From Xiphydria camelus (Eukaryota; Arthropoda; Insecta; Hymenoptera; Xiphydriidae): DNA of 64,000 nt. The position numbers and the translations under genes were made by a program. The stretch is taken from contig OY783200.1 of NCBI GenBank assembly GCA_963678675.1, positions 14,875,246-14,939,245 of the forward strand. The letters are read 5' to 3'. Below are positions 4,737-50,900 of this stretch, piece after piece. Numbering within the stretch: the stretch's first letter is position 1; every line of letters starts with the position of its first letter. The notes below the pieces were generated by a model. The model was given only the letters and a program-made list of their open reading frames with translations. It was not told the origin of the DNA and ran no database searches.

Positions 4737-5062
4737 TTAAGGGCCGGTTTTACCAACACGGTATAAACGCCGTATAGCGCTATACTGAGAATAACCTGTA
4801 CGCAAGCGTTTTACCACGATGGTATAAGTCTGGAATAGGATAAACTTTGGAATAAATGCAGGGATAGCTTATCCGGCAGTTTCAGCGCTGGATAAGCTAG
4901 CTATCCTCGGGATAACCTAACTTTTTGTTTGCGTCTGTTATTCCGTGACAGAATCACAACCGTGACAGAATCATAATAATTGTTATTAGTTGTGAAATAG
5001 AGTTGATTGATGTGCCAGTTGTCAAATCATCATCTGATGATGAAATTGACGTCTTACAAAGA

Positions 5063-5849
5063 ATGAGAAATCCTAGGAAAATACGTGCCCGGTAAGTAAA
5101 TAAAGGATACCTATACCTACTAATTTATAACCAATATCTAATACAAAACTATTCCAGAGTTGACTATTTCGAAGAATACAATGGTTGTAGAATTCTTCAC
5201 TTGCTTTCGTTTGGAAAAACAAACCTGTCAGAGATTATTGGGACAAATACGACATCGCATTGCTTCGAGGTCGCCAAGAAATGCAGCAATTCAGCCAGCA
5301 ACAAAATGATTGCCGACTTTAAGATTTCTTGCTTCGGGATCAATGCTAATTACTGTAGGTAATCGTTTTTATCATAATGTTAAAACTTTTAATTAGTCAT
5401 TATTATATGCCGCCACCTCAGCAACCTCCAACGACTCCTAACATCGCGAGGAGAGCTAGTTTACAGGGCTACAAGTTCATCGATCGGCATAAACCGCCAC
5501 TGATCTCCCAGAAATCAATGGGCGACATACTGAAAAACATCAACAAAGTCAAAATGAAACTCGTCACAAGGTACGATTAAACAATTTTATCGCGGTAAAC
5601 TTTTTATTCGCCAGGAACAAAGAGGAGTTTCGCATTGTCAGAATGTCGTGGCTGCGAAAGATTGATTTTGTTCACAGTGGGCTTTTAAACGTGTTTTTAT
5701 GATCGCCGGGTGGGAGACCTTTGCGAGCCAAACGAGAAAATAGCTCTTGCAACGACCTTCAAGAGATCTTACGGAAACGATATATCGCAATGCAATCGCC
5801 GGACAGTAGAAATTCCACCGCGACGTTGACGTTCGATAATTCGTTCTAG
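5063..5849 (+). pseudogene. Chimeric Harbinger/fission-regulator-like gene, copy 1 (broken)
   Basis: The exons correspond to 5063-5091, 5158-5358, 5397-5570 and 5702-5849. The last acceptor has changed: where copies 2 and 3 read TTTTTCAG, copy 1 reads TTTTTATG (5694-5701), so the final exon cannot be joined normally. This copy also lacks about 80 bp of 3' flank present in the others. Exon 2 differs at a few bases. It is the most diverged copy and is presumably non-functional as a chimera. Confidence 0.6.
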
Positions 5850-7805: not shown

Positions 7806-8592
7806 ATGAGAAATCCTAGGAAAATACGTGCCCGGTAAGTAAATAAAGGATACCTATACCTACTAATTTATAACCAATATCTAATGCAAAACTATTCCAG
7901 AGTTGACTATTTCGAAGAATACAATGGGTGTAGAATTCTTCACTTGATTTCGTTTGGAAAAACAAACCTGTCAGAGATTATTGGGACAAATACGACATCG
8001 CATTGCTTCGAGGTCGCCAAGAAATGCAGCAATTCAGCCAGCAACAAAATTATTGCCGACTTTAAGATTTCTTGCTTCGGGATCAATGCTAATTACTGTA
8101 GGTAATCGTTTTTATCATAATGTTAAAACTTTTAATTAGTCATTATTATATGCCGCCACCTCTGCAACCTCCAACGACTCCTAACATCGCGAGGAGAGCT
8201 AGTTTACAGGGCTACAAGTTCATCGATCGGCATAAACCGCCACTGATCTCCCAGAAATCAATGGGCGACATACTGAAAAACATCAACAAAGTCAAAATGA
8301 AACTCGTCACAAGGTACGATTAAACAATTTTATCGCGGTAAACTTTTTATTCGCCAGGAACAAAGAGGAGTTTCGCATTGTCAGAATGTCGTGGCTGCGA
8401 AAGATTGATTTTGTTCACAGTGGGCTTTTAAACGTGTTTTTCAGATCGCCGGGTGGGAGACCTTTGCGAGCCAAACGAGAAAATAGCTCTTGCAACGACC
8501 TTCAAGAGATCTTACGGAAACGATATATCGCAATGCAATCGCCGGACAGTAGAAATTCCACCGCGACGTTGACGTTCGATAATTCGTTCTAG
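7806..8592 (+). CDS. Chimeric Harbinger/fission-regulator-like gene, copy 2
   Basis: Predicted exons are 7806-7834, 7901-8101, 8140-8313 and 8445-8592, all with GT donors and AG acceptors. Joined they give 552 nt, 183 codons plus stop, with no internal stop. Exon 2 matches a HARBI1-type transposase N-terminus only in another frame (LLGQIRHRI...LRFLASGS); the joined frame reads it shifted. Exons 3-4 read MPPPLQPP, then GDILKNINKVKMKLV, then RSPGGRPLR and LQEILRKRY. This resembles the C-terminal half of the MTFR1/FAM54 mitochondrial fission regulator family (proline run, then a helix with NKVKL-like sequence and SPGG). Upstream ATGs could block translation. Expression is unknown; host-gene capture is inference. 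Confidence 0.5.
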
Positions 8593-10636
8593 ATTAAGAA
8601 CTCGATGATACTCAAGTTCTCTGGGTCGCAGCAATCGCGTCGGACGGTGCTCCGAGGAACGGCTATTGTAGCCTTCCTTTCCACGCGTGAGATTGAATCA
8701 TGATTATAATTTTATCTGAGTCAGAGCTTTGGAGAATCAAAATTAATAGATCTCTCTTCTTTTTTTATAAATGAGTCTTTCTCTGCGAGGTAATTTCGCA
8801 CGACACATTTTAGATTATAGTTCTTTTTTAATAGGAGGATAGAAGCTCATAGAAACGTCGGGAAAATTTTGTTTTCTCTCTTCGCTCTTTTGCTCAGAAA
8901 ATGCAAGTTTAAATTTAAAATTGACGCACGCGGGTCTCTAATCGCGAGAATCTCAACGGTATCCAATAATATCAACCAAAGAAGTCATCTACCATTGCAT
9001 TGTCTTCTATAAGTAACATTTAAATTTATTTAGGTAGACATTATACCTTTCTTCAATTCGCGTGATTGCAGAGTTTTCAGGAGCAGACGTGATACATCCG
9101 TCGTACGATGTAGAATTTAAAAAAATTTTAGATTTGCATTGATACACTTTTGTAAGATACCTCGGCATTAGACATCAAGTCCTACAACGCTCTTTGTATA
9201 CTTTTTAGATAGGGTCGCGTATACTTAAAAAAACGATAACATTGTACCGCTCTATGTAATCTCAGAGTAATGTCACCGCGTGATAAATCTTAAGTTGTAA
9301 CGATTTAAAAGTTTATAGATTTTAGAATATATTTTGTCCGATACGAGATTTGGATCAAATGGTGCAATTTTACGTTGTAATTACTATTATTGTGTGACGA
9401 CCCTTATAGTTTTTTGAGACTGAACACATTCTTGTTGGTGAGATATCGAATGTTTGGACGTGTTTTGTACCTGATGCTTTTATCGACGACTCGAAAATAA
9501 AAGTTATTATAACGAAAATATAAATATATTGTTATAGATATCTTTTATTTACCGGGCACGTATTTTCTTTGGATTTCTGATTCTTGGTAATACGTCAATG
9601 TCATCATCAGATGATGATTAAAAAACTGGTACATCAATCAACTATTTCAAAATTAATAACAATTTACCACAACGATCAGGTTATGATTATGTCATGAAAG
9701 AATAAAGACGTCAAAAACAAAAAGTTAGGTTATACTGAGAATAACAACTCCGAATTTCATTTATCGCGCCGGAACAGCTGTCAAAACGACCAAATGTCAT
9801 GCGCAGTACGTACTTCTTACTACCAACCTAAAAATAATTTTAGATGGCCAACGCTTATACCTGGAATAGTTATCCCAGGCAAACTTGGAGCTGGTAAAAC
9901 GCCTGCGCTTTGTACCAGGTATAAAGAAGAGTATAAATTTATCCTCGGTATACTTATTCTAGGTATAACTTGGCTTTGGTAAAACTGGCCCTTAGGGCCG
10001 GTTTTACCAACACGGTATAAACGCCGTATAGCGCTATACTGAGAATAACCTGTACGCAAGCGTTTTACCACGATGGTATAAGTCTGGAATAGGATAAACT
10101 TTGGAATAAATGCAGGGATAGCTTATCCGGCAGTTTCAGCGCTGGATAAGCTAGCTATCCTCGGGATAACCTAACTTTTTCTTTGCGTCTTTATTATTCC
10201 GTGACAGAATCACAACCGTGACAGAATCATATTAATTGTTATTAGTTGTGAAATAGAGTTGATTGATGTGCCAGTTGTCAAATCATCATCTGATGATGAA
10301 ATTGACGTCTTAGGGCCGGTTTTACCAACACGGTATAAACGCCGTATAGCGCTATACTGAGAATAACCTGTACGCAAGCGTTTTACCACGATGGTATAAG
10401 TCTGGAATAGGATAAACTTTGGAATAAATGCAGGGATAGCTTATCCGGCAGTTTCAGCGCTGGATAAGCTAGCTATCCTCGGGATAACCTAACTTTTTGT
10501 TTGCGTCTTTATTATTCCGTGACAGAATCACAACCGTGACAGAATCATAATAATTGTTATTAGTTGTGAAATAGAGTTGATTGATGTGCCAGTTGTCAAA
10601 TCATCATCTGATGATGAAATTGACGTCTTACAAAGA

Positions 10637-11423
10637 ATGAGAAATCCTAGGAAAATACGTGCCCGGTAAGTAAATAAAGGATACCTATACCTACTAATTT
10701 ATAACCAATATCTAATGCAAAACTATTCCAGAGTTGACTATTTCGAAGAATACAATGGGTGTAGAATTCTTCACTTGATTTCGTTTGGAAAAACAAACCT
10801 GTCAGAGATTATTGGGACAAATACGACATCGCATTGCTTCGAGGTCGCCAAGAAATGCAGCAATTCAGCCAGCAACAAAATTATTGCCGACTTTAAGATT
10901 TCTTGCTTCGGGATCAATGCTAATTACTGTAGGTAATCGTTTTTATCATAATGTTAAAACTTTTAATTAGTCATTATTATATGCCGCCACCTCTGCAACC
11001 TCCAACGACTCCTAACATCGCGAGGAGAGCTAGTTTACAGGGCTACAAGTTCATCGATCGGCATAAACCGCCACTGATCTCCCAGAAATCAATGGGCGAC
11101 ATACTGAAAAACATCAACAAAGTCAAAATGAAACTCGTCACAAGGTACGATTAAACAATTTTATCGCGGTAAACTTTTTATTCGCCAGGAACAAAGAGGA
11201 GTTTCGCATTGTCAGAATGTCGTGGCTGCGAAAGATTGATTTTGTTCACAGTGGGCTTTTAAACGTGTTTTTCAGATCGCCGGGTGGGAGACCTTTGCGA
11301 GCCAAACGAGAAAATAGCTCTTGCAACGACCTTCAAGAGATCTTACGGAAACGATATATCGCAATGCAATCGCCGGACAGTAGAAATTCCACCGCGACGT
11401 TGACGTTCGATAATTCGTTCTAG
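10637..11423 (+). CDS. Chimeric Harbinger/fission-regulator-like gene, copy 3
   Basis: This is the same four-exon structure shifted by 2,831 bp: 10637-10665, 10732-10932, 10971-11144 and 11276-11423. All splice signals seen in copy 2 are kept, and the ORF translations of the two copies are identical. The near-identity points to very recent tandem duplication, gene conversion or an assembly duplication. No promoter is evident beyond the TIR. The start codon is chosen as the first in-frame ATG of exon 1; the frame is open further upstream without ATG. Confidence 0.5.
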
Positions 11424-13484
11424 ATTAAGAACTCGATGATACTCAAGTTCTCTGGGTCGCAGCAATCGCGTCGGACGGTGCTCCGAGGAACGGCTATTGT
11501 AGCCTTCCTTTCCACGCGTGAGATTGAATCATGATTATAATTTTATCTGAGTCAGAGCTTTGGAGAATCAAAATTAATAGATCTCTCTTCTTTTTTTATA
11601 AATGAGTCTTTCTCTGCGAGGTAATTTCGCACGACACATTTTAGATTATAGTTCTTTTTTAATAGGAGGATAGAAGCTCATAGAAACGTCGGGAAAATTT
11701 TGTTTTCTCTCTTCGCTCTTTTGCTCAGAAAATGCAAGTTTAAATTTAAAATTGACGCACGCGGGTCTCTAATCGCGAGAATCTCAACGGTATCCAATAA
11801 TATCAACCAAAGAAGTCATCTACCATTGCATTGTCTTCTATAAGTAACATTTAAATTTATTTAGGTAGACATTATACCTTTCTTCAATTCGCGTGATTGC
11901 AGAGTTTTCAGGAGCAGACGTGATACATCCGTCGTACGATGTAGAATTTAAAAAAATTTTAGATTTGCATTGATACACTTTTGTAAGATACCTCGGCATT
12001 AGACATCAAGTCCTACAACGCTCTTTGTATACTTTTTAGATAGGGTCGCGTATACTTAAAAAAACGATAACATTGTACCGCTCTATGTAATCTCAGAGTA
12101 ATGTCACCGCGTGATAAATCTTAAGTTGTAACGATTTAAAAGTTTATAGATTTTAGAATATATTTTGTCCGATACGAGATTTGGATCAAATGGTGCAATT
12201 TTACGTTGTAATTACTATTATTGTGTGACGACCCTTATAGTTTTTTGAGACTGAACACATTCTTGTTGGTGAGATATCGAATGTTTGGACGTGTTTTGTA
12301 CCTGATGCTTTTATCGACGACTCGAAAATAAAAGTTATTATAACGAAAATATAAATATATTGTTATAGATATCTTTTATTTACCGGGCACGTATTTTCTT
12401 TGGATTTCTGATTCTTGGTAATACGTCAATGTCATCATCAGATGATGATTAAAAAACTGGTACATCAATCAACTATTTCAAAATTAATAACAATTTACCA
12501 CAACGATCAGGTTATGATTATGTCATGAAAGAATAAAGACGTCAAAAACAAAAAGTTAGGTTATACTGAGAATAACAACTCCGAATTTCATTTATCGCGC
12601 CGGAACAGCTGTCAAAACGACCAAATGTCATGCGCAGTACGTACTTCTTACTACCAACCTAAAAATAATTTTAGATGGCCAACGCTTATACCTGGAATAG
12701 TTATCCCAGGCAAACTTGGAGCTGGTAAAACGCCTGCGCTTTATACCAGGTATAAAGAAGAGTATAAATTTATCCTCGGTATACTTATTCTAGGTATAAC
12801 TTGGCTTTGGTAAAACTGGCCCTTAACTGTATTTTTACTTTTTATTAATAAGCGCGTCCGAGCGTCGGAATAAACGCGAAGGAAATCGTTTCGCGAATGG
12901 AAATATTTTATTAACTTTGAAAACCACGTTTTATTTCAAAAAAATACAATTACTCTGAAAAATTCCACTTTGTAAACAAACGTATGTGTCAACCGCCAAC
13001 TTTCTCGTCTGCTAGGTGTCGCGCCCTAGGGAACTTCTATCGCGACGATTGACGTCTGCCGGCGATCGACAGAGCCAATCGTTCGGCGTCCTTGCGTCTC
13101 CGACCAATAGCGGACAACCTAGAGTCTACAAATCGCTACATACCATATCGTCCTATGTATACAACATACGTGGAGACCCGGTATATTTATTAGTGCACGC
13201 CTTTAAGGCCAAGACACAATGAAAGATATAAGGAATAAGAAATAAGAGATAAGGAATAAAAATCCAATCAACGTAATGCAATGGCCGAAGGCACAACATG
13301 AAAATAAGGAATAAGAATACGATTTTCGTTACGTTGGAATTTTATTTCTTATTCCTTATTGCGAGCCAATCACAGCAAGGTATACTGACACAGTACCCTA
13401 ACCTCCCATCAGCTTTTCCAGACCCCGATAGCAAAGTGGCACCACAGTGACTGCACCCTGCTTTCACGCGGTGCATTCGAGTGC

Positions 13485-17315: not shown

Positions 17316-18912
17316 TTTAAGTTAGGTCGTTATTACATACAGACGCGTCTTATTCTCCATTTCCATTTAAAAACAATCATAGGAAAGTCATCTTTCTTTT
17401 TCTACTATTTATATATCGTATATAATAAAACTCGTTTGAGAGAAATATATTATTATTTATTGACCTCTTCGTTGAAAAAGATTAACATTACATAACTACC
17501 ATTTTATAAAAGTAAATTATTTTAAATGTGACATCTTATGGAATATCTCTATTCTGTCCTCGTCTAATATAATCGTACTGCTATGGGGCGAAGGCCAGCG
17601 GGAGTTATAAAATATGACGCAAGAGCGTCTCTCATTTCATATGCTTCCCTTTTAGCTCGGTGCGCTCCAACGTTTCCTATCGATCTGAGCTGATTATCCT
17701 GCAGTATTTCTCGCCATTCTCCACCAATTCTGTCTCCTTCACTACTTTCATGATCTGTGAAATTGGGAGGGCAATATCGTTGTTGCTGGGGTGCAACTTC
17801 ATCGTTTTTGCATTTTAAAAAATTATGTAAAGCTATTGTTGCCATTACTATTTTATCTACAACATCTAGACCGGCACAAATTGGTTTCCGGAATATTCTC
17901 CATCTCGACACGAGAATTCCAAATGCGTTTTCGATGGTTCGCCTAGCACGTGAGAGACGATAATTAAAAATTCGATGTAGTTCATTCAAATGTCTGCCTG
18001 GATAAGGTCGCATAAGCGTCGTTGACATTTGAAATGCTTCATCGCCAACGAAATAATACGGAGTTTCAATGTCTGATCCAGGTAAACGTGCCTTTCCTCC
18101 TGGTATATTTAAATGACGTCCATATAATGCTGAACCAAGCGTTGATCTGGACAATACTCCACCATCACTTTCACTACCGAATGCACCAACATCAAATAAT
18201 ATGAATTTGTATTTGCTATCACAATAACTTTGCTATAACGATACTAAATGTCTTCTTATAATTGAAGAATGTCGATCCCGAATTTGGTGGTGCTTGGATA
18301 GTTATGTGTTTGCCATCTATGACCCCAATGCAGTTCGGCATGTTCCAATTCATTAAAAAATCAAAGCAGATCCTCTTCCATTTTTCCTCCGTAGGAGTTT
18401 GTACATATACTGGTATCACAACATCCGCTATGACATCACATGTCTCTTTTATGATCTTGCGAGCAGTGGACTCACCAACTCTATAAGCTAAAGCTACAGA
18501 GAACACTTGATCGCCAGTTGCTAAATATCTGTAACAGATTTATTAAGAACTTGTTACTGCAACACTAAATAGTCAATATAATTATGTTTCCTTCATTGAA
18601 TACCATTTATGCCAGTCTTATTAGCCCGTGATATTAGATTTTTTAACTACTAACTATATAACGTCTATTATAGAAATATATTTTATTCAAATTAAGTAGA
18701 CCATAAGTACCTCAGTGTTATTGCAAGACGCTGTTCAGGACAAATCGGTGCTCTTATACTTGTTTTTGTCAGATATGGCTCCAGCATACGTAGCAATTCA
18801 TAAAATGTTGTTTCAGTCATTCTTGTATATAGAATAGAATTGATGGGTGGCATAAACCGGGCGCTCAGTCCTGTTGGACCATTGTGCCCGGGCCCCAGCT
18901 GGGGCAGCCCAA

Positions 18913-21291
18913 TCAAACGTGACATCGGGGTATGTCGGCCTCCCTCGCAAGGCGCAGAAGCCCACTCACCCCGATGTCCCCAATATCGACATCATCAACA
19001 AAGGGGGCCCCCAGGATAGTAGTCCTTAGGGCCATCAACCTCTCGCAATGCGCTAGTACGTGCAGAGGAGTCTCCTCCTCATTACCGCACCTGGGGCATA
19101 GGGTCTCCGTACAGATGCCCATGTTCCTCAGGTGCCTCCTCGTGAGCCACTGCCCAGTGACCAGCCCCACGACTAATCGAAGCTGGGTCCTATCCAGGTT
19201 CAGTAGCGCGGTGCTCAGCTTCCTAGACGGTCCCTTGAAGAAGGCCCTCGTGTGTCTCATGCCTGGAGACTGTGTCCAAAGGTCGGCGAAGCGTTCCTTA
19301 ATCCAGTTATGAGCCGCCTCCCTCACAGTCCCCATTGAGACACCTATTACCCGTCCGGCCTCAGGGTTAGGCTGCGCAGAGCCTAACCGAGCCAGCTCGT
19401 CGGCTTTCTCGTTGCCATGGATTCCGGTATGACCCGGCACCCACAGCAGCTTTACCTGATTCTCATAAGAGAGTCGCTCCAGCAGATTCCTACAGTCCCG
19501 GACCAGCTCTGACGTGGCTCTCACTGAGGAGAGCGATCCGAGCGCAGCCCGGCTGTCACTGCAGATGTAGATGTGCTTGCCCCTGTAGCTCTTGTTTAGC
19601 ATGAATCTGACACAGGCCCAGATGGCAAACACCTCTGTCTGGAAAACCGTGACGTCGCTGCCCAAGGCGAAAGATAGTTCCACCCTAGGCCCGCCGCACC
19701 ATATTCCCGCCCCGGCTCCTCTCCCCATCTTGGACCCGTCCGTGAACCAGACGAGTCCCTTCGGAGACAGAAGGCCATTTTTGTCCTCCTCCCAAGACGA
19801 TCTGTCCGGAAGGAGAACATGGAATCGACGCTGAAAGAAGAAGTAGCTCTCCTGGCATCGATCCCCCTTCTTTGAAGCGAACCTTTCTAGCACTCCGTTC
19901 CCTCGAAGGATCGCGGCGTGCCCCCTAGCCGCCTGCCTCCAGTGTCCACTGAAGTGCAGGCGCAGCGCCGTCTTCCTCGCCCCAACCTCCGCCATAAGGT
20001 GCGGAGGTGCCAGGTTGAGGAGGGCCCCCATGGCCAGGGTCGGAGTGGTACGCAATGCACGGGTGATTCCCAGGCATGCGAGTCTATAGACTCTAAGTAG
20101 AGTCTTGCGGTTTATGTCCCTTGCGAGAGAGGGCCACCATACCACCGACGCGAAGCAGAGTTGAGGTACCAAGATGGCGGTGTAAATCCATGCCACCACC
20201 TTCGGCCTCAACCCCCATGTACAGCTAAACATCCTTCTGCAGGCCCAGATGGTGGAAATTGCCTTCTGAGCCTGTTTATTGATGTGATTCCTCCAGGAGA
20301 GTTTGCTATCCAGCGTCACCCCTAAATAGCGCACTGCCCCAGAGGTCTTCAGCTTTACGCCGAAGATGGAAGGAGCCACAAAGGTGAGATTCCTCTTATG
20401 CGTGAACAGTACCATCTCTGTCTTGTTAGGATTAACCTTCAGCGACTGAGACAGGCACCAGTTCTGCACAAGGACCAGCGCGCGTTGCATCCGCCACGCT
20501 AGAAATCCATGATCTTTACCTTTAACAGAGATAGCCAAGTCATCGGCATAACCCTGTACGGTAAAGCCAGCCTTCCTGAGCCTAACCAGAAGCCCGTCCA
20601 CCACCAGAGTCCACAGGAGTGGAGAAAGTACACCCCCCTGCGGACAACCCCTGGCAGCCCGGGCCTCTACCTCGGCACCCCCAAGACTGGCCCAAACCAT
20701 CCGCATTTGCAGCATATTTTGGATCCAGCAGACGATAGATTCATCAATGCCGAACCCTCTCGCCGCATCGCATATAGCTTCGAAGGAGGTATTATCAAAT
20801 GCCCCCTCAATGTCCAAAAACACACTCAGAACCGATTCTTTCCTATCGAGAGACCCCTCTATCTCGCGGACGAGACAGTGAAGAGCCGTCTCTACGAATT
20901 TACCGGTCTGGTATGCGTGCTGAGTCCGCTCTATCGGTCTTTCAACCAGAGCGGTATCTCTAATGTATCTATCAACCAGTCTCTCCAGCGTTTTAAGCAT
21001 GAAGGACGTAAGACTGATAGGTCTAAAAGACTTGGCCTGGTCATAGTAGCTCTTACCCGGTTTGGGTATGAAAACTACCCTGACTTTCCTCCAAGCCTTA
21101 GGGGTATAACCCAGAGCCAGACAGGATCTGAAGATGGTACAGAGGTGTTTAAATAGGTCCTCTCCTCCCTCCTGTAGGAGAGCCGGAAAGATCCCATCCA
21201 CCCCAGGGGTTTTGTATCTCTCAAAGGAGTTAATGGCCCACTTGATCCTGCTGAAAGTGACCACCTTCGTGGCCGTTTTCCAGTCCCCCAT
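18913..21291 (-). CDS. Reverse transcriptase-RNase H (ORF2)
   Basis: 792 residues. The reverse transcriptase spans about 15-330: KTPGVDGI (28-34), FRPISLT (89-95), catalytic Asp at 160 (VFLDIEGAFD), CPQGGVLSP (216-224) and YADD (248-251). RNase H spans about 512-640 with D518 (FTDGS), E553 (TEVFA), D579 (CSDSRA) and D631 (KADELA), so its catalytic set is complete. A C-terminal Cys-His knuckle CPRCGNEEETPLHVLAHC lies at about 732-749. The frame closes upstream at a TGA (21334-21336), so no endonuclease precedes the RT. The protein itself looks intact. In non-LTR elements it copies the element RNA at the nicked target. Confidence 0.9.
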   Translation of the reverse strand: MGDWKTATKVVTFSRIKWAINSFERYKTPGVDGIFPALLQEGGEDLFKHLCTIFRSCLALGYTPKAWRKVRVVFIPKPGKSYYDQAKSFRPISLTSFMLKTLERLVDRYIRDTALVERPIERTQHAYQTGKFVETALHCLVREIEGSLDRKESVLSVFLDIEGAFDNTSFEAICDAARGFGIDESIVCWIQNMLQMRMVWASLGGAEVEARAARGCPQGGVLSPLLWTLVVDGLLVRLRKAGFTVQGYADDLAISVKGKDHGFLAWRMQRALVLVQNWCLSQSLKVNPNKTEMVLFTHKRNLTFVAPSIFGVKLKTSGAVRYLGVTLDSKLSWRNHINKQAQKAISTIWACRRMFSCTWGLRPKVVAWIYTAILVPQLCFASVVWWPSLARDINRKTLLRVYRLACLGITRALRTTPTLAMGALLNLAPPHLMAEVGARKTALRLHFSGHWRQAARGHAAILRGNGVLERFASKKGDRCQESYFFFQRRFHVLLPDRSSWEEDKNGLLSPKGLVWFTDGSKMGRGAGAGIWCGGPRVELSFALGSDVTVFQTEVFAIWACVRFMLNKSYRGKHIYICSDSRAALGSLSSVRATSELVRDCRNLLERLSYENQVKLLWVPGHTGIHGNEKADELARLGSAQPNPEAGRVIGVSMGTVREAAHNWIKERFADLWTQSPGMRHTRAFFKGPSRKLSTALLNLDRTQLRLVVGLVTGQWLTRRHLRNMGICTETLCPRCGNEEETPLHVLAHCERLMALRTTILGAPFVDDVDIGDIGVSGLLRLAREADIPRCHV

Positions 21292-25375: not shown

Positions 25376-28300
25376 TTTTCCTTTTTTATTTTAAATAATA
25401 AAGACTTAGAACTAACAACTTACTTAGACTTATAAATTTGGATCTCAGCAATAATGACAATGATAGTAGTAATGATACTATTTTTAAAAACATAGTTTAC
25501 TTATCAACCCATTCGCCATATAACTTTGGTGCCTTGATGGTTCGTCCGAATCGGGACTGTTTGGATGTTTTAATGGCAGTGTCTTTGACGGATTGCAATT
25601 CACCCTGACTTGGTGACTGTTCTAGCCCTTCGCTTTGCTGACCTCCAAGTTCAATCACGTTCGGACTTATCTGTGGCTCGTCCTTAGCTTCTAAATCATC
25701 CTACCATCCCAGGTAGCACACTGACGTTAGAATAACGTCTCAGACGTCATTTTTGGTCAGTACCGGGTGTACGCCGAGAAGCCCCACTTTTTGAATTTCC
25801 CTGACATTTGACTTCGATAGTGGTTGGGTCGGCGCTCTAGTCCTGATAGGCCAACATTAACTATCAGGACTAAAGCACCGACCCAATCACTACCGAAGTC
25901 AAATATCAGGGAAATTCAAAACCCAGGTAGCACACTGACGTTAGAATAACGTCTCAGACGTCATTTTTTGGTCAGTATAGGGTTTCAGACGTCAGTTGTC
26001 GTAATATTAACGTCATAGGGACGTCAATTTAGGACGTACCTTGGACGTCAAAATTCAACGTCTTTTTGACGGAACTTTTCCGTCATTTTTAATGACGAAC
26101 GAGACTTAGAAAAATTTCGGTCTCCTGCATATACCGTATGTCCAATGGCTAGTCGAGCAGGTGCAGCGACCTGAATTTTTCTGAAATTTGACTTCGGCAG
26201 TATTTTAGTTAGAGTTGGCTTTGGAAGATGGCGCTACGTACGAGCGAAATATTTGAAATGGTAAAAGCGGGAGGTAGATAAATGCGGGAGAAGTGAAGTT
26301 TAACCTCAAAATTGTGAATGTTGGAATAATGGTGAGTAATTGTTTGAAACGATAAGACATAATAATTCGGGTTTCTTTTCGATGTTCAACCAAATAACAC
26401 GACTGATATTTAATTGCAGAGAGAAACTGATGCGACTGGTAGTCGTGGAGGAAGGGTCTACCGTCAACGTGGTCCTCGCCAGAGTGGTCGAGCTCTGCCT
26501 CGTCGACGAAAGGTGCAATTGAAATGAAATTAAAGTCTGAGTCAAGGTGAAAATTGGAAGACATGGAAAGAAAACGCGGCAGAGTCGCCGACAGAAGGAG
26601 TGAGTAAAGTGCGAAAGAAAAGTGCAGTGACGCCGAAAAACCATGTGGAAGACAGTGACGAACAGCAGCAGCAGCTGGTCGACACTGCTCAACTCCGCAC
26701 CAGCTCCTGAATGATATCTCGCCGATCGCGATACGCGGCCGCTCCGATGGACAACGATTCCAGACATTCGAGTCGTAGTAGCAGCAAGGACAGCAGCAGC
26801 AGCAGCAGCGTCAACGGCAGGGGCACTCTTTTAAAGCGAAGGCAGTCCAAGACCGACTCGAATAGCTGTAAGAGAAAGACGCATCGGCGGAAACATGAAA
26901 TATCGAAGCAAGACTTGCAATGAGAGTGCGGTAAAAGAAAGAAAAAAAATGACAGAGACGAGGCGACGAGATAGAGGAGGAAGTCGTCACCACGAACGGT
27001 TCCTGAAACGGTACCAGTACTAGCAACGTGTGAAGAGTTCAAGAGAACGGGACATCTACACCCAGTCGCAAATCATGCAGTTCCTGTGACATCCGACAGC
27101 GGCATCACGTCAGGAGTATGAACGGTGGAGAAGAACGGGAGCCTCGCTGAAAAAGGAAGGAGCAGTGTTGGCGATGGCGGTGACAGCCCGGATCATGAGC
27201 AAAGGCTGAAGAACCTTGAGCGTTTTGAATAAAAAGTGGACGTGACTCGAAGCAGTTATCGTAATCGATTTACGCCGACACTGGTGCCGTAGCCAATCTC
27301 GATCACAATGGATTCTTCCAACTAGAGGCGGTTTCTATATCACTCGTCGCCGTTGATCCTTTCCCTCTCAATCCTTGTACATAATGCATCTGTTAATATG
27401 AAGTTTGATCCGAAACCCTTCCATCCTTCCTATTGTAACACTCTCATAACAATACGGTCCGATTATTTTATATTCATAAGGTTTTATCAGCTTTACGCGT
27501 TATTCCTCGTTATTTTCGTTATTTAACCTTGCATTCATACATTATTACTGATGGATTATTAATAAATTAATTCATGAAAGTGACTCTACTGGCTTGTGCT
27601 ATTTTTCGTCCGGTATTTCCTTCCGCAAGATATTTGGATAAATGTACCCCTTCGATCTTGAAGAGTTTGGTTGGAATAAGCAAGACGGATAGTGGACAGA
27701 GTTTAGGCATTAGGAGGCATACAAGATGTCACAATCAGCGGGACAGGATTTCGTGTAGTCATGATTTATTAGAATTTTTTCATTCATAAAATTAGCTCCC
27801 GCAGGGGAAATTACATTTTGTACTGTAAACTATGAGATAGATGTATCTCATTTAGAGCTACTAATGAAGTATAAAATATCAATTGAACACAGATTTGTTG
27901 GTACAGAAACGATTACTATCCACTTTACTTACTATAAATCATGATTACACGAAATCCTGTCCCGCTGATTGTGACATCTTGTATGCCTCCTAATGCCTAA
28001 ACTCTGTCCACTATCCGTCTTGCTTATTCCAACCAAACTCTTCAAGATCGAAGGGGTACATTTATCCAAATATCTTGCGGAAGGAAATATCGGACGAAAA
28101 ATAGCACAAGCCAGTAGAGTCACTTTCATGAATTAATTTATTAATAATCCATCAGTAATAATGTATGAATGCAAGGTTAAATAACGAAAATAACGAGAAA
28201 TAACGCGTAAAGCTGATAAAACCTTATGAATATAAAATAATCGGACTGTATTGTTACGAGAGTGTTACAATAGGAAGGATGGAAGGGTTTCAGATCAAAC

Positions 28301-29797
28301 TTCATATTAACAGATGCATTATGTACAAGGATTAAGAGGGAAAGGATCAACGGCGACGAGTGATATAGAAACCGCCTCTAGTTGGAAGAATTCATTGTGA
28401 TCGAGATTGGCTACGTCACCAGTGTCGGCGTAAATCGATTACGATAACTGCTTCGAGTCACGTCCACTTTTTATTCAAAACGCTCAAGGTTCTTCAGCCT
28501 TTGCTCATGATCCGGGCTGTCACCGCCATCGCCAACACTGCTCCTTCCTTTTTCAGCGAGGCTCCCGTTCTTCTCCACCGTTCATACTCCTGACGTGATG
28601 CCGCTGTCGGATGTCACAGGAACTGCATGATTTGCGACTGGGTGTAGATGTCCCGTTCTCTTGAACTCTTCACACGTTGCTAGTACTGGTACCGTTTCAG
28701 GAACCCTTCGTGGTGACGACTTCCTCCTCTATCTCGTCGCCTCGTCTCTGTCATTTTTTTTCTTTCTTTTACCGCACTCTCATTGCAAGTCTTGCTTCGA
28801 TATTTCATGTTTCCGCCGATGCGTCTTTCTCTTACAGCTATTCGAGTCGGTCTTGGACTGCCTTCGCTTTAAAAGAGTGCCCCTGCCGTTGACGCTGCTG
28901 CTGCTGCTGTCCTTGCTGCTACTACGACTCGAATGTCTGGAATCGTTGTCCATCGGAGCGGCCGCGTATCGCGATCGGCGAGATATCATTCAGGAGCTGG
29001 TGCGGAGTTGAGCAGTGTCGACCAGCTGCTGCTGCTGTTCGTCACTATCTTCCACATGGTTTTTCGGCGTCACTGCACTTTTCTTTCGCACTTTACTCAC
29101 TCCTTCTGTCGGCGACTCTGCCGCGTTTTCTTTCCATGTCTTCCAATTTTCACCTTGACTCAGACTTTAATTTCATTTCAATTGCACCTTTCGTCGACGA
29201 GGCAGAGCTCGACCACTCTCCCAGGTAGCAGTGGCACGTCAAACTCACGTCAATATTTCGTCACTCGATTCGTCGAAATAACGTGATTAGTTCGGTTATA
29301 ATGTCGTCATAAATGACGTGATTATGTCTCGTTAAAGAGACGTCATACTTCGACGTCAATATGTCGTCACTATAGTCACGTTTTATTTACGTTCGTTTTT
29401 ATTGATTCGGGTCGTCATATTGACGTTAAAAGTTACGTGATAATGCCATCCTAAAGACGTCACACTTTAAAATCTTATTCTCAGTGAAAAGCTTTGCAAT
29501 ATTATTTAAACTCAAGGAAATTTTAAAGAAGAGTGTAAAAAATGTAAGTAAAGCTCTAGTCGCAATATTGTTAAACAGTGAAATATGATCATTAGAATTA
29601 CAATAATAGGCATTGAAAAATATTAATACACAATTGCATATTCGAGAAATAACATCTACATATATTTGAGAATATACATATATATGTACGTAATACATAT
29701 TGTATGTTAAAACTTCTAACGTACGGTATGTGTATAACTTCTAACGTACGTGTTATGTATTTCGGTACTATTGAAGGATATTATACATTAATTATTC

Positions 29798-31888
29798 CTA
29801 AGTATAAATCGAGTGTATTAAAGGCAACGAAACCCAACAATCTTTATCATTCTTTTGAGTAATAGGTAGAACTAGACATTTAGCAGTAATAACGTTGATA
29901 GGCCATGTTTCATAATCATTTGAAATTCCTGTGATGACATAAATATCTAATTCTTTAGAATCTATTGGATTACAATATAATGATGTATGAAATGAAAATC
30001 GTTTCCCGACTATCGTAAAAGAATTGTTGTGATCCATCAAAATATTATGAATTTGCACAACTGATCTAGATTCTTTTATAAGGCAATACGAATCAGCTTT
30101 AGAATATGCATGGACAGAAATCTGGAAATTCTGCAAGCGTAGTTGTTTAAATTGTTTACTGTTTCTGAAAATAATATTTGTAGGAAGAGGGCCACAGTTA
30201 TATTCAAATTTAGGAATTATTGGTCCTTTTAATTTGATATTTTCATTAATAAATGCACTTTCAATTTCACTTATACGGCGGCAAATTTGCTGTAGTGGTC
30301 TATTAGGTGACTTCACTAAGCGTTTAATTTGTCCTAAAAAGTTTTCGAAAACAAACGCTGAGAAATTATCCAAAGGTCCATACATTTCTGCATCATCGCT
30401 GAGGTGAGATAACATATGAATATTATGAATTAAAAATTGTTTGCCATACAATTTTTCACAATGCTTAACAAATACGTTTAAAACATTGCCAGCAGTCCTG
30501 CAGCCGAATGTGGAAATGTGTTTGTATGAAATCAGAATAGTAATAGCAGAATGAAAGAGCAAGAAATGTTCATATATCGAGGGATCTACGATATTTCTTA
30601 ATACAATCGGACCTAGGTATAATACAAAAGTTCTAAATTCTGTTGCTTTCCAGCGTGGCAATTCTTCCAAGCTGCGGGGTTTGCGGTTAAACTCTACAGG
30701 AATGTAAAATCGCGATGACAATAAGCGTTCTGATAATAGATGAACTGATCTACTGCCTAGGCGGACTTGTAAAGAACCAGAAATCCAAGTATTTAATAAC
30801 TTTTTAGCAACACCTAAACATACATTATGCATATAATCTATGGGGAAATTTGACACTAATCCTATTGTTGGAATTTTCGATAAAGGTGAAACGCCTAAGT
30901 GGTGGTCGCTATCTATTTGTAGAGAGAATGAAGTATCAGTTCTCTTAGGCGCATGAATACCTTGCAATGTAACTCTTCCATCGACATACTCGCCAGATTC
31001 TGTACATTTTTCACAAGAAGAGTATCCGCCATGAGATTTTATACATTTTAAGTATGCCCTAGCTGGAGCATCGCAAACGAAGCTATGTAAAGTGACAATA
31101 TATTTTTTGTTATCAAGTTTAATGCCATTTTCCAATAAATGACTAAGATCATTTACAAAATTTTCTAAAAACTCGGTTAGTGGCTTTGGTTTGCCGTTGC
31201 CACAAAAAATTCCAACAACAAAAGGTTGACATTTTATTTTTTTTATTAACCCCAAAATAGGCCACAACTGCGTTTTCGAACTTGCAAATAAGGGCAAACC
31301 ATCAACATTGAAACTTATTTCTATTACATTACTAGAAATATCCTTCAGATATGGGGAAATTACTTTTTTAATTCCATTCAATAAACCCAAGTGGCAGTAT
31401 TCCCCGTTTTCTAGTTTCTTAGTGTCTATATTTAATTTAGTTACTAATAAACTTCGTGAATCAAGCGGTAAATCTGGATGATAGGGCGAAAGAATGTGTA
31501 ATAGATCATTAACTGTCGAGCGAGGTACATTCCTAGTTATTGCCCAAAGTCTCAGCTTCTGAGAGAGATCAGGTGTTTCAATCGTACTGCTACTATCGGA
31601 AAGCATTTCAAAAGTATCATTGTTATAGACTAATTCTGATGTGGTAGCACTGTCATTCAAAAATACGCGATTCATGTGGGTACTATTTTGAAGTAGCGGT
31701 GAAACATTGCTATCACAATCGCTTCTATATACATTTTCGCTTTTATGATTATGTGCAATAGACTCCTTCGTTACTTGAATTCTATTACTTTCCTGTTTTA
31801 TTTCATGTAATGCATTTTCGACAGCTTTTGCAATTTTTCTATTCCGCTGACGTTTCCCTGTAGTTGCATTTGTCGTCTTTCTGCTCAT
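29798..31888 (-). CDS. CACTA/tnp2-like transposase
   Basis: 696 residues in one open exon. After a basic, low-complexity N-terminus (1-105) come a small helical segment (KLRLWAITRNVPRSTVNDLL, 111-130) and the catalytic-looking core: FNVDGLPLF (193-201), FVCDAPARAYLKC (270-282), a Cys cluster GGYSSCEKC (287-295) and PIDYMHNVCLG (349-359). A C-terminal region HNIHMLSHLSDDAEMYGPLDNFSAFVFENFLG (488-519) resembles the DUF4218 domain that follows tnp2 transposases. These match the layout of CACTA-type transposases, which cut at the element ends. Which acidic residues form the triad is inference. The ATG lies three bases after the DUF4806 stop. Confidence 0.75.
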   Translation of the reverse strand: MSRKTTNATTGKRQRNRKIAKAVENALHEIKQESNRIQVTKESIAHNHKSENVYRSDCDSNVSPLLQNSTHMNRVFLNDSATTSELVYNNDTFEMLSDSSSTIETPDLSQKLRLWAITRNVPRSTVNDLLHILSPYHPDLPLDSRSLLVTKLNIDTKKLENGEYCHLGLLNGIKKVISPYLKDISSNVIEISFNVDGLPLFASSKTQLWPILGLIKKIKCQPFVVGIFCGNGKPKPLTEFLENFVNDLSHLLENGIKLDNKKYIVTLHSFVCDAPARAYLKCIKSHGGYSSCEKCTESGEYVDGRVTLQGIHAPKRTDTSFSLQIDSDHHLGVSPLSKIPTIGLVSNFPIDYMHNVCLGVAKKLLNTWISGSLQVRLGSRSVHLLSERLLSSRFYIPVEFNRKPRSLEELPRWKATEFRTFVLYLGPIVLRNIVDPSIYEHFLLFHSAITILISYKHISTFGCRTAGNVLNVFVKHCEKLYGKQFLIHNIHMLSHLSDDAEMYGPLDNFSAFVFENFLGQIKRLVKSPNRPLQQICRRISEIESAFINENIKLKGPIIPKFEYNCGPLPTNIIFRNSKQFKQLRLQNFQISVHAYSKADSYCLIKESRSVVQIHNILMDHNNSFTIVGKRFSFHTSLYCNPIDSKELDIYVITGISNDYETWPINVITAKCLVLPITQKNDKDCWVSLPLIHSIYT

Positions 31889-31891
31889 TGT

Positions 31892-34006
31892 TTAAGGATT
31901 CTGTTTCTTCAATTCTTGAATTTTGTACCGTTGAGGTGCGTGTTTAAGCCAAATTTTGATACTGTCGTTGATTTCTTGTTCTGAACAATCAGTTGAGTTT
32001 ATTGCACCTGGAATTAAACAATTTCAAACAAGTTTGTTAAACATATTGCCACTCAAAATACAAGAGTAATCTGTTCCACCACTCTGATGTGTAATGGGAA
32101 TTTGTAGCGGCACGCAGCATAACTCATTCTTCAAAGTATGTCAGAATACTTACGAACGACGGCAGTCTTCAACTTTAGTTGTGAAAAAACTTTCTTATCT
32201 GCACGCTTGCCAAAGAAACTATATTCTTTTGCGAGATTGTCTGTTATGCATCGACGTAATATATTATTTACTTTGGATGATGTGTTTTTACCGCCCAATT
32301 GTGATAGGTATGTAGACTGAAACAAAACGTTATTCCTTTTTTGTATAGGCTTATTTATGTCTGGAAATATGTTGTGATGTGACTTTTGAAATTGAGTTAA
32401 AGTGATAAATTGAATTCTTGAATTGCGGTATACGTATATGTATGCTATTCATATGATTTACGAAGTATGATAATAAAAAGAAGTAATCAAATATAGAGAA
32501 GCTTGAATCAAATTATATGTCAATATGTTTATAAGTAAAGAGACAATTCTTACGAAGCCAATCAAATTTTCTTTTTCTTCTAAATAACGTTCGAATCCAT
32601 CTAGATCATCAGTAGTATTAATCGGTAAATTTGATGGTAAATGTGCTGCTTGACATTGGTTTAACGTGGCAGTTGTTGACTGCTTTTCAATCCATCGAAG
32701 TATTTGGGTATTTTGTTCTTTTATAATAAAAATTTCTCGTAATAACTTCCGTTGAAACACTACAATAAATTAATCAAAGTATTGGTAAAAATATATAGAC
32801 ATACGTCTGTTAATTTTCCTACATAAAATCTGTATATTAGGTTGGCGGAAACGTTTTGTCGTATTGCAATATGTGCAGGCAATTTTACCCGCACATATTG
32901 AAATATTGGATTTCAAATATAATTACCATAGGCTTACCGATATTATTAACATTATTTGCTGCTAGGTCATCTAAATCATTATTCAAAGTACCGGTAGATT
33001 GCGATACTTTTGAAAGATGAGAGATCGTTGAATGAGATGGTTGAACTGAATAATCATCATCATTTCTTGTATTAATAGAATGTGGATCGGAATTAACTAA
33101 AAAATATTCAGATCATACATTTCTAATTCATACAAAGATATGATACAAAACTGTTAAATAGCTTATTTCATGTAATAAGATTGCTCGTAATTGTTGGATC
33201 ATGTCCATAAAATGATACAAATCAAGTTTTAAATTTCCTATAATTATTTAATGAAGGCTCAATTTGAAAATCTTCTTAAATTTATCGAAATGCCAGCGCG
33301 AAAAATATAATCAGCCATGTTCATTAATAATTCTTCAGGTGTACGTACCATCCTCTCCCAGTTTCAATCTTTTGCACTCAGAACCAGACTTTTTATAGAT
33401 TTCTACCTTCGGTGGTCTAGGAAGAAGACTGATATTTTCTTCGTCACTCGAATCAGACAAAATTTTGCGGGTAGCAGAGACTTTTCTCTTCCACGATTGC
33501 TTTTTTTTTGGTGTTTCAATACCTGACTGTATATCTGAGGTTACTTCGGCTTGTTTTATTTTATACGAAGCTTTTTCAAAATCATCTGTATAGAAATATA
33601 ATGATTATAGTTTTTTAATATCGAATTGAAGAATCTGATGAAATAAAAAAAAATGTTATCGAACGATATCTCGTGCATTCGTTCAGCGCTCAACCATATC
33701 ACAAAGAAAAGATAATGAGGAGCTCCAAAAATTCGGCTTTACGTTGTTATCCCCCTTTTGTTAAGAAGGAATAAGCATATGTGTGTACTTACCGCACTCA
33801 AAAAAACGACGGCAAATACCATACACTGTCCAGGTCTCCTCATCTGGATTTTCCCCACGTTTTAATAATTTATTGTATTCATTTTGCGTCTTGCATGGTG
33901 GCCACAAGACTTCTTTTTTTCGTGGCGTTAACCAGCGGCTATTTACTACAGCTATGCCGCCTGCACATTCCTCGGAAGCAGAAAACTCGACGCCTACATA
34001 TGTCAT
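31892..34006 (-). CDS. DUF4806-domain protein of the transposon, six exons
   Basis: Exons on minus: 34006-33793, 33585-33349, 33096-32938, 32759-32554, 32316-32154 and 32007-31892. All have GT donors and AG acceptors, and the phases agree, giving 1,095 nt (364 aa plus stop). The N-terminus (MTYVGVEFS... KKEVLWPP ... WTVYGICRRFFE) and the C-terminal domain (REIFIIKEQNTQILRW, LPINTTDDLDGFERYL, LSQLGGK, LAKEYSFFGKRADKKVFSQLKL) match the insect DUF4806 family. Several members of that family are transposon-linked; its biochemical role is not known to me. The middle is Ser/Asp-rich with a basic patch (KKKQSWKRK). It probably serves as accessory protein to the transposase; that is inference from linkage. 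Confidence 0.8.
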
Positions 34007-34989
34007 TATACGCGACGTCTTATACAGTCACTCTTTTTTCGCTCGCTCTCACTTTTATTTTCCTGTCACTTTGCTGCTTTAAGAAATCGTATATGCACTG
34101 CACTGAAAATGCCACGAATGTTCGAATATCGTTTGAACTGTACGGGACTACCGACGTGACTGAACCGAAATTTTCAAACTCAAAGAAATAAACCGTTTCT
34201 GCCGTGGTGACGGTACGTTAGTATAGGGAAAGACCCACCTCGGTCTACGGCATTTGGTCAGCACATGGAACTCATTAAACGCGGATACCAAGGAAAGTGG
34301 CAGGTAACACGGGTACCCGCAATGCCGTGATTTTCTATTCCGTTGGAGTTCTTGTAAAAAGTATCCCGCAGAGGTATCAAGGGAAAATCCCGTTTATTTC
34401 CGTTATTTGTAATTTTATGAAAATATATTTCAAATAAAATTTGTTTGGTATTGAAAGATACATATGGTAGATGCAACAGATTTTCAATGACACGCATTAT
34501 TTACGAGATATGAAGGTTACTTTCATCTTTTTAAGTGGAATTCGGTATTTTAATTCCTACAAAAGTAGTAGAGCTCGTCAAGATGAACAAAAAAAGGTAA
34601 AAGGTGAAATGTCCATTCGCTGAACCGTTTGTGAGATATTTCCGCTCAAAGTACAAGAGTAAATTTCGCTGGGCGCTGGAAACTTAGTCGCACGCAGCGC
34701 AATTTACTCTTGTACTTTGAACGAAAATATCTCACAAACTTTTCAACTGATGGGTATTTCATCTTATACATTTCTTACAGTTACACACCTGATTATGCGT
34801 AGGGAAATAATAAATTATGTGACTGTTTCGTCAACAAATTACGTGAAAAAAACGTCATTTCAATGACGTCATAATATGATCTTCAAATAACACGTGATTA
34901 AAACGTCGAATTTAAGGCATATGACGTCGTCGACGAACAATCACCTTCAAGCGACGTGAATATGACGTGTCACTGCTACCTGGGTCTGG

Positions 34990-35500
34990 CGAGGACCACG
35001 TTGACGGTAGACCCTTCCTCCACGACTACCAGTCGCATCAGTTTCTCTCTGCAATTAAATATCAGTCGTGTTATTTGGTTGAACATCGAAAAGAAACCCG
35101 AATTATTATGTCTTATCGTTTCAAACAATTACTCACCATTATTCCAACATTCACAATTTTGAGGTTAAACTTCACTTCTCCCGCATTTATCTACCTCCCG
35201 CTTTTACCATTTCAAATATTTCGCTCGTACGTAGCGCCATCTTCCAAAGCCAACTCTAACTAAAATACTGCCGAAGTCAAATTTCAGAAAAATTCAGGTC
35301 GCTGCACCTGCTCGACTAGCCATTGGACATACGGTATAGGGGCTTGAAAATTCTTATGTGAATAAATGGACAAAAATTGTAATTTGTTCAATTATTAAAT
35401 CAATAAATTATTTCATTTCGAGTCTCCAGAGTATGTTGAGCAAGTTATAAACTATACTGTTTATTAAAAAGCACAGATTATTAAAGTAAATGAAAGACAA
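34990..35500. other. End of foldback arm, then host-element sequence
   Basis: From 34988 to 35334 this repeats the foldback arm seen at 26134-26480 in inverted order. From 35337 on it is the CCCAGG element, here AT-rich with TTTA repeats (35535-35595). The ORFs here are images of those in the left arm. Confidence 0.6.
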
Positions 35501-36950: not shown

Positions 36951-37200
36951 CGTCAGACCTAAGCTTTTAGAACCGTCATTTTTTACGTCATCATAACGTA
37001 CGGTAGAACGTCATTATGACGTGATTTTTCTGACGTGTGGATGTGCAATTAAGCTGTCTTTGCGACGTTAAAATGACGTCATATTTTTCGTCATCTGACG
37101 TCAGAACTGACCTTCAAAAAACGTCATTTCGACGTTAGTGTGCTACCTAGGTTACTTCGGGATCAATTCTAAACTCTTTTTCATTTGAGTCTTTGATTAA

Positions 37201-49918: not shown

Positions 49919-50900
49919 CCCAGGTAGCAAGCTGACGTAAACTTGACGTCACTTTTAGGGCATATTTCGTCGGCGACGTCATTCTACCAAAAAATGACGT
50001 TTTAATGTCGTCATTCAAGAAACGTCTTTAAGACGCCTTAAATATGACGTTAAAAAGACGTTATTTTTACGTCGTAATAAAATTTTTAAATAACTATACT
50101 TATTATACAATATACATTGAATATTTTTATATTTTTTTATAATGTATAATATAAAAATATTTGTATAGTGTGGTCTACTCTAATTCTCGATTCTTATATC
50201 TCTGTACCATTTTACCAGTACGTTTTTTTTGTAATAAATAAAAGTAAGATTTTTTATATTGCGGTCGTTTCTATACTCATATAATTATTTATTTATTAAT
50301 ATCAATTTGCGTCTATGCAAGAATATTTATCAAAAGATACAATCATAAATTTAGAAAGATGTTGAGAAAAGAATAATACAATTATAAAATCTTATTTATT
50401 TAAGCTCTTTCTTATTGACTGGAAAAGCAACATACATTTATTCATCAAACTTCATATGAACACCAATAGTAATACTTGATACCACAGAAGCGTGCAGCAG
50501 ATGAGAACTCAAAAATACCGACCGATCGACGAAGTTAAGCAGCAAAAAGTGCGGACAGTAGTTGGATGGGTGACCGCTCACGATGAAAAGATATACGTCA
50601 GCCCTAACCTTCCAGAACCGTCATTTTTTACACAATCACGTTATATTTTTCGTTATCTGCCGTCAGAGCTGACCTTCAAAAACCGTCATTTCGACGTTAG
50701 TGTGCTACCTGGAAAATCGCTAAAATTAAACGTCATATTTCACGTCATAAAGAACGTTAGAAAGACGTCATTAAATGACGTCAGTGGGATGTGACTTTCG
50801 AACGTACTTTTAACGTCATTTATACGTCTTTTACTGACGTCGTCTATGACCAGATCTGACCAAAAAATGACGTTAATTTCACGTTAGTTTGTTACCTGGG
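49919..50900. mobile_element. CCCAGGTAGCA-family non-autonomous element
   Basis: Left end CCCAGGTAGCAAGCTGACG, right end complement CGTTAGTTTGTTACCTGGG at 50900. A second right end (GTGTGCTACCTGG) occurs at about 50693-50712, implying a nested or truncated relative. Subterminal ACGTCA/TGACG words are frequent. It shares 35500-37151 sequence, including the 5S-like block. No transposase; the element at 29220-34984 is a plausible source of one. Confidence 0.65.
50517..50585 (+). ncRNA. 5S rRNA-like promoter region in a transposon
   Basis: CCGATCGACGAAGTTAAGC, then GTGCGGACAGTAGTTGGATG and GGTGACCGC follow the order and spacing of the 5S rRNA A-box, intermediate element and C-box. The rRNA ends are not present, and no T-run terminator lies close by. 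It might allow TFIIIA binding or transcription of the transposon; that is inference. Confidence 0.6.

What the first reader, a model, noticed from the sequence alone, without database searches (positions are those of the whole stretch)
29220..34984. Compact two-gene transposon: DUF4806 protein and tnp2-like transposase separated by three bases
A six-exon DUF4806 gene ends TAA, then ACA, then the ATG of a 696-aa transposase on the same strand. Both frames are intact, the TIRs are intact, and the empty site and TCT duplication are visible. The stop-start spacing suggests one bicistronic transcript with reinitiation, or alternative splicing that skips the last DUF4806 exon. Pairing of DUF4806 with a CACTA-like transposase in one element, with CCCAG ends, may be undescribed.
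Basis: partly seen in the sequence, partly recalled or inferred. Interest (0 to 1): 0.9.

Follow-up and report, generated by a model that had tools for sequence, protein, structure and literature searches.

The report
CACTA-like transposon with BEN-type partner protein
This is a complete, recently inserted jumping gene of the CACTA-like kind that carries, besides its cutting enzyme, a second gene for a protein with a DNA-binding (BEN-type) fold, and related pairs of genes recur in beetles and ants, so the pair looks like the working kit of this transposon group.

Summary
A 5,765-bp element (29220-34984) has 32-bp inverted ends (29/32 identical), a TCT duplication, and an empty site in the window's own inverted duplicate (flanks match at 676/677). 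On the minus strand lie a six-exon gene (364 aa, DUF4806) and, three bases after its stop and in frame, an intact 696-aa transposase ORF.

It belongs to the CMC group and is closest to animal TRC elements. CCC/CCCAG ends, alternative transcripts and tandem ORFs are in print; I found no description of the DUF4806 partner in my searches. Most likely the partner binds the ends (a TnpA analogue; inference). How the second ORF is translated is open: leaky scanning is unlikely; alternative 5' splicing or reinitiation remain. The genome-wide copy test did not complete.

The parts
29220..29251 (+). left terminal inverted repeat, CCCAGGTAGCAGTG...
   Evidence: 29 of 32 identical to the other end
34953..34984 (-). 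right terminal inverted repeat
29217..29219 (.). target site duplication TCT, left copy
   Evidence: single copy in the empty site
34985..34987 (.). target site duplication TCT, right copy
29236..29463 (.). left subterminal array of ACGTCA/ACGTGA-type repeats
   Evidence: 16 CGT[CG]A sites in the outer 300 bp against a mean of 2.7 in shuffles, 0 of 1000 shuffles as high
34829..34968 (.). right subterminal array of ACGTCA/ACGTGA-type repeats
   Evidence: 9 sites in the outer 300 bp against a mean of 2.4 in shuffles, 1 of 1000 as high
33793..34006 (-). DUF4806/BEN gene exon 1 (conserved N-terminal domain begins here)
   Evidence: alignment; model
33349..33585 (-). DUF4806/BEN gene exon 2
32938..33096 (-). 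DUF4806/BEN gene exon 3
32554..32759 (-). DUF4806/BEN gene exon 4
32154..32316 (-). DUF4806/BEN gene exon 5
31892..32007 (-). DUF4806/BEN gene exon 6, coding part, ends TAA; carries the conserved WLKHAPQR motif
29798..31888 (-). transposase ORF, 696 aa: RAG1/Transib-like DDE core (D196, D273, E515; C292, C295; H491, H495) and C-terminal BAH-like domain (about 555-687)
26481..26483 (-). empty (pre-insertion) site with one TCT, in the inverted duplicate of the flanks
26130..26806 (-). uninterrupted copy of the two flanks (28894-29219 plus 34988-35338)
   Evidence: 676 of 677 identical

Best explanation
An apparently autonomous, recently inserted cut-and-paste transposon of the CMC/Transib/RAG1 group, closest to the animal CACTA elements called TRC. 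Shown: complete ends, 3-bp target duplication, empty site, two open genes, DDE and zinc-site residues, clustered subterminal repeats. Inferred: the transposase, a RAG1-like DDE enzyme with a C-terminal BAH-like domain, cuts the element out and inserts it, making 3-bp duplications. The DUF4806 protein, whose C-terminal domain models as a BEN fold, binds the subterminal ACGTCA/ACGTGA repeats through that domain, may dimerise through its long helix (196-232), and brings the two ends together for the transposase, as TnpA does for TnpD in maize Spm (Spm roles recalled). The two proteins come from one transcription unit read from the right end; the transposase is most likely made from an alternative transcript in which a leader is joined to the exon-6 acceptor, leaving the transposase ATG as the first ATG of exon 6, with reinitiation after the DUF4806 stop as the next possibility.
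Against: No copy in the same genome could be examined: the genome search did not complete. Pfam does not name this transposase above cut-off. Ends are not CAC and the duplication is not the 2 bp reported for TRC. The BEN call rests on fold: Foldseek's best E is 0.034 with none at 0.001 or below, the BEN Pfam model matches 1 of 24 rows at E 0.026, and no BEN chain appears in the sequence search of the PDB. The BAH call has no sequence support. No LOC number is shared between the X1 and X2 rows, and one of the four X2 rows (P0161) matches only 36% of the query, so the isoform pattern is indirect. 12 ATGs stand in the 978-bp stretch between the right end and the DUF4806 start, so a leader taken from there could carry ATGs of its own. 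One search found 912 transposase relatives while searches found 28 and 43 relatives of the DUF4806 protein (45 in all); 5 of 14 genera show no such relative. Binding of ACGTCA by this protein is inference.
Confidence: 0.75

Rival explanations
1. Bicistronic mRNA with reinitiation: one spliced mRNA carries both ORFs (3,189 nt from the DUF4806 ATG to the transposase stop); ribosomes that finish DUF4806 restart at the ATG three bases after the stop.
For: Stop and start are three bases apart, with A at -3 of the second ATG; the same order is implied by the Rhamnusium composite models. Tandem ORFs on one transcript are reported for SmTRC1 and Spm TnpD (section 8 of PMC1636069).
Against: Reinitiation after a 364-codon ORF is usually inefficient in eukaryotes (recalled). 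Exon 6 lacks ATGs before the transposase start, which also suits an alternative transcript.
Confidence: 0.3
2. Stop-codon readthrough or fusion: the two ORFs are in one frame, so a DUF4806-transposase fusion is made by reading through the TAA.
For: Same frame; merged proteins in databases: five Rhamnusium, one Cyphomyrmex.
Against: Same frame is a one-in-three coincidence. In P0014, read by eye, the merged model lacks the conserved transposase N-terminus, as expected if an intron was predicted to avoid a stop. In the 36 aligned rows a conserved N-terminal motif (R13 and R17 invariant, VGxRQxYRR in the consensus) follows soon after a Met start; these starts are largely those of ORF callers.
Confidence: 0.06
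3. DUF4806 is a passenger: a multi-exon host gene carried along with no role in transposition.
For: No functional test exists; DUF4806 genes are also reported in zebrafish and Hydra (passages of PMC11075544 and PMC7642931), whose context I did not examine.
Against: Relatives accompany relatives of the transposase in beetles and ants; the protein is conserved at both ends across 24 rows; it models with a DNA-binding fold.
Confidence: 0.12
4. DUF4806 protein is a self-regulator rather than a structural partner: a BEN repressor that binds the ends and damps transcription of the element.
For: BEN domains are found in neural transcriptional repressors (title of a reference seen; otherwise recalled); repeats lie at the presumed promoter end too.
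Against: The arrays are at both ends, not only upstream; not exclusive with end-binding.
Confidence: 0.2

Closest known systems
TRC elements (animal CACTA): SmTRC1 of Schistosoma and the Tribolium and Aedes elements, PMC1636069 (passages, section 8)
   Same: CCC ends; the 27-bp Tribolium end (element of about 5.2 kb) matches this one at 9 of its first 11 bases; transposase of the Transposase_21 kind there, weak DUF4218 match here; alternative transcripts and tandem ORFs there.
   Different: 2-bp duplications in the Tribolium and Aedes elements, 3 bp here; no DUF4806/BEN partner in the passages and the section read; in the SmTRC1 tandem clone the transposase part comes first, here second.
Maize En/Spm (CACTA): TnpA and TnpD
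   Same: Two proteins from one element, tandem ORFs on the TnpD transcript; subterminal repeat arrays and 3-bp duplication (recalled).
   Different: Ends are CACTA there, CCCAG here; no BEN domain in TnpA that I know of (recalled, not tested); gene order reversed.
Transib / RAG1-RAG2 and the amphioxus RAG-like transposon
   Different: No RAG or Transib chain in the PDB sequence search; 3-bp rather than 5-bp duplication (5 bp recalled); partner models as BEN, not RAG2-like.
Harbinger / Nuwa with a Myb/SANT partner
   Same: Transposase plus separate DNA-binding protein (passage of PMC12730594).
   Different: Different transposase superfamily and different DNA-binding domain.
Spongebob / EnSpm-4N1_HM of Hydra (PMC4298943, passages)
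   Same: CCCAG ends, 5.8 kb, CACTA group.
   Different: 2-bp duplication; no exact transposase could be found there; no partner described in the passages read.

Membership tests
[quoted passage not shown]
   D196, D273, C292-x2-C295, H491-x3-H495, E515; 36 of 36 rows, pattern in 109 of 120 listed homologues
CMC/Transib group (filed here) | RAG1/Transib-like core fold | tested here: met
CACTA/EnSpm in the strict sense | Transposase_21 / DUF4218 homology | tested here: inconclusive
   window protein 24.5 bits to DUF4218, below cut-off 27, and no Transposase_21 hit; among 36 aligned rows DUF4218 in 32 and Transposase_21 in 6 at E up to 0.01
CACTA/EnSpm in the strict sense | 3-bp target site duplication | tested here: met
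   TCT, shown against an empty site; one insertion only
CACTA/EnSpm in the strict sense | termini begin CAC / CACTA | tested here: not met
   termini are CCCAG; so not filed as a CACTA-ended element
TRC (animal CACTA) | CCC termini and a CACTA-type transposase in an animal | tested here: met
   animal origin inferred from beetle and ant relatives
TRC (animal CACTA) | 2-bp target site duplication, as reported for the Tribolium and Aedes elements | tested here: not met
   3 bp here, so called TRC-like, not a TRC member; a 982-bp relative at 49919-50900 is flanked by AA/AA
RAG1/Transib proper | sequence homology to RAG1 or Transib chains | tested here: inconclusive
   no RAG or Transib chain in the PDB sequence search with the 36-row profile
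BEN domain | BEN fold | tested here: met
BEN domain | sequence match to Pfam BEN (PF10523) | tested here: inconclusive
   1 of 24 rows at E 0.026; DUF4806 in 23 of 24
BEN domain | sequence-specific DNA binding | not testable with these tools
   needs a binding assay
BAH domain (transposase C-terminus) | BAH fold | tested here: inconclusive

The most novel reading that the evidence does not exclude
A widespread insect lineage of RAG1-like (CMC) transposons works as a two-protein machine that parallels RAG1/RAG2 with different parts: a RAG1-type DDE enzyme that carries its own chromatin-reading BAH domain, and a separate BEN-domain protein that recognises arrays of ACGTCA repeats and joins the ends. 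DUF4806/BEN proteins of animals would then in part be descendants of such transposon end-binding proteins.
Probability: 0.3. Interest if true: 0.7.

Novelty: new variant of a known kind. Interest (0 to 1): 0.5.

Why it matters
CACTA elements are best understood in plants, where a second protein binds the ends (recalled). This element gives an intact animal example with a named candidate for that role, a DUF4806/BEN protein, and with clear candidate binding sites, so the role can be tested directly. It also suggests a source for part of the uncharacterised DUF4806 genes of insects, and it links a domain known from host repressors to a RAG1-like transposase.

Tried and rejected
Other copies in the same genome: the genome search 'own' did not complete in 16 calls, so copy number, pairing in sister copies and empty sites elsewhere were not tested.

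Relatives as DNA: three scans of viral contigs and one of genome contigs found no relative. These collections are viral, bacterial and archaeal, so the pairing rests on protein records and their names.

Leaky scanning: judged unlikely, because 20 ATGs, the DUF4806 start included, precede the transposase ATG in the predicted spliced message.

Skipping the last DUF4806 exon: rejected as written, because the transposase ATG is in that same exon.

912 transposases against 45 relatives of the DUF4806 protein (28, 43) looks like transposases without partners. I do not read it so, because 86 of the 120 listed transposase rows carry only the source tags lgn, ena or jgi, against 3 of the 45 DUF4806 rows; I take those tags to mean contigs without gene models, where a six-exon gene is invisible (my reading of the tags). 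Among rows with annotated sources the listed numbers are 34 and 42; the transposase list is cut at 120.

Genus count: 14 genera are named in the 120 listed rows (of 912). A relative of the DUF4806 protein is listed for 9: Aquatica, Photinus, Callosobruchus, Psylliodes, Diabrotica, Cyphomyrmex, Pyrocoelia, Temnothorax (a partial match, 36% of the query) and Rhamnusium (composite models only). None is listed for Sitophilus, Anthonomus, Ceutorhynchus, Diorhabda and Exocentrus; with a word-based, length-limited search that is not proof of absence.

Structure: the N-terminal domain of the DUF4806 protein (about 1-88) was not folded alone, so its fold is untested. In the viral library two bracovirus proteins lead the DUF4806 model's list, best E 3.2e-3; not followed. 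PDB sequence searches with both profiles gave no relevant chain.

Literature: ten searches. 'DUF4806' occurs in 4 papers of the library; I saw passages of three and only the listing of the fourth. None of what I saw pairs it with a CACTA element. 'BAH domain' with 'transposase' and 'CACTA': no paper. 'BEN domain' with 'CACTA': two papers; passages of one show no link, the other was seen only in the listing. Passages only were also seen of PMC4298943, PMC12730594 and PMC3985635. Repbase could not be consulted. Pan 2023 on BEN domains is not held; I saw only its citation.

On re-reading my calls I corrected: the name TRC member to TRC-like (2-bp duplication not met), the Temnothorax match to partial, and the count of BEN chains solved with DNA. 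Confidence was lowered from 0.78 to 0.75 for the first and second.
Full report
What is there. The window holds a complete element of 5,765 bp at 29220-34984. Its two ends are inverted repeats of 32 bp, 29 identical. Both flanks show TCT. The window also shows where it landed: a large inverted duplication lies around it (arms 26775-27769 and 27934-28928, 98%; 26130-26483 against 34985-35338; 26481-26806 against 28894-29219). The arm without the element has one TCT at 26481-26483, and joining the two flanks of the element gives that arm at 676 of 677 positions. The inner parts of the arms are 98.9% alike over 1,289 aligned bases. So the insertion is younger than the duplication, unless gene conversion or an assembly of two alleles explains the arms; in each case the empty site is evidence of a 3-bp duplication.

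Genes. On the minus strand a predicted six-exon gene with five GT-AG introns encodes 364 aa. Its stop TAA, then ACA, then ATG opens a 696-codon ORF without introns, in the same frame. Pfam finds DUF4806 above cut-off in the first protein; in the second it finds DUF4218 below cut-off.

Likely binding sites. CGT[CG]A, the core of ACGTCA/ACGTGA, occurs 32 times on either strand in the element, 25 of them in the outer 300 bp of the two ends. The left end has 16 against a mean of 2.7 in shuffles (0 of 1000 as high), the right 9 against 2.4 (1 of 1000). ACGT-rich subterminal sequence also follows several other CCCAGGTAGCA-type ends in the window, among them a 982-bp relative at 49919-50900 flanked by AA on both sides. 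That this protein binds these repeats is inference.

Is the pairing general? Two pairs of consecutive locus tags join a DUF4806 protein with a transposase: Aquatica leii RN001_002793/002794 and Pyrocoelia pectoralis RI129_012829/012830, with the same stated contig length within each pair. Five Rhamnusium proteins, about three distinct sequences, hold a DUF4806 part followed by the transposase, and one Cyphomyrmex protein holds the N-terminal part of the DUF4806 protein followed by the transposase. Of 14 genera named in the listed transposase rows, 9 also have a listed relative of the DUF4806 protein, one of them partial. All of this is from protein records; no second element could be read as DNA, because the genome search did not complete and the other collections gave no relative.

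How the second ORF is made. Twenty ATGs stand before the transposase ATG in the predicted spliced message, the first being the DUF4806 start, so scanning past them is unlikely. Exon 6 has none before the transposase ATG. A transcript that joins some leader to the exon-6 acceptor could therefore present the transposase ATG first, if that leader has none; the 978 bp between the right end and the DUF4806 start hold 12. RefSeq-style names point the same way: 7 of 7 isoform-bearing transposase rows among the 120 listed read 'isoform X1' and 4 of 4 such DUF4806-relative rows 'isoform X2', although no LOC number is shared. Alternative transcripts and tandem ORFs are described for SmTRC1, and for maize Spm as told in the same paper (section 8 of PMC1636069). 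Reinitiation remains open; readthrough is unlikely.

Against what is known. Animal CACTA elements with CCC ends were named TRC in 2006, with a Tribolium element of about 5.2 kb whose end agrees with this one at 9 of 11 bases (passages); CCCAG ends are also printed for Hydra (passages). The element is therefore of a known kind. It differs in the 3-bp duplication (2 bp reported there) and in the identified BEN/DUF4806 partner, for which I found no description in ten searches (listed under Tried and rejected). Repbase was not available. I file it in the CMC/Transib group, TRC-like, as a new variant of a known kind. It is not filed as a CACTA-ended element (termini CCCAG) nor as a TRC member in the strict sense (duplication 3 bp).

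Noticed in passing
window 26130-29219 with 34985-35338: Large inverted duplication, arms about 1.6 kb and about 99% alike around a 164-bp spacer; one arm carries the transposon. A true palindrome or a join of two alleles in assembly.
   Followed up: partly
window 49919-50900: 982-bp likely non-autonomous relative with CCCAGGTARCA ends, ACGT-rich subterminal sequence and AA on both flanks.
   Followed up: partly
window 25708, 25922, 37141-37151, 50703-50713: Further CCCAGGTAGCA-type ends followed by ACGT-containing sequence; the two at 25708 and 25922 share their first 60 or so bases almost exactly and look like remnants of one small element family.
   Followed up: partly
window 34590-34776: Imperfect palindrome of about 185 bp (79% self-complementary) inside the element, upstream of the DUF4806 start; by eye a similar degenerate stretch lies in intron 5 (about 32030-32150), which BLAST did not report.
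   Followed up: partly
window 18913-21291: Open 792-aa minus-strand ORF that reads by eye as a non-LTR retrotransposon reverse transcriptase with an RNase H part.
   Followed up: no
window 17564-18154: 196-aa minus-strand ORF that reads by eye like a Harbinger-type transposase fragment.
   Followed up: no
window 4938-12202: Repeat array of three copies spaced 2.74-2.83 kb, most parts 98-99% alike.
   Followed up: no
DUF4806 model m68f538d5363c: Best viral fold matches are two uncharacterised bracovirus proteins, in line with BEN domains reported in DNA viral proteins (title of a cited reference).
   Followed up: no
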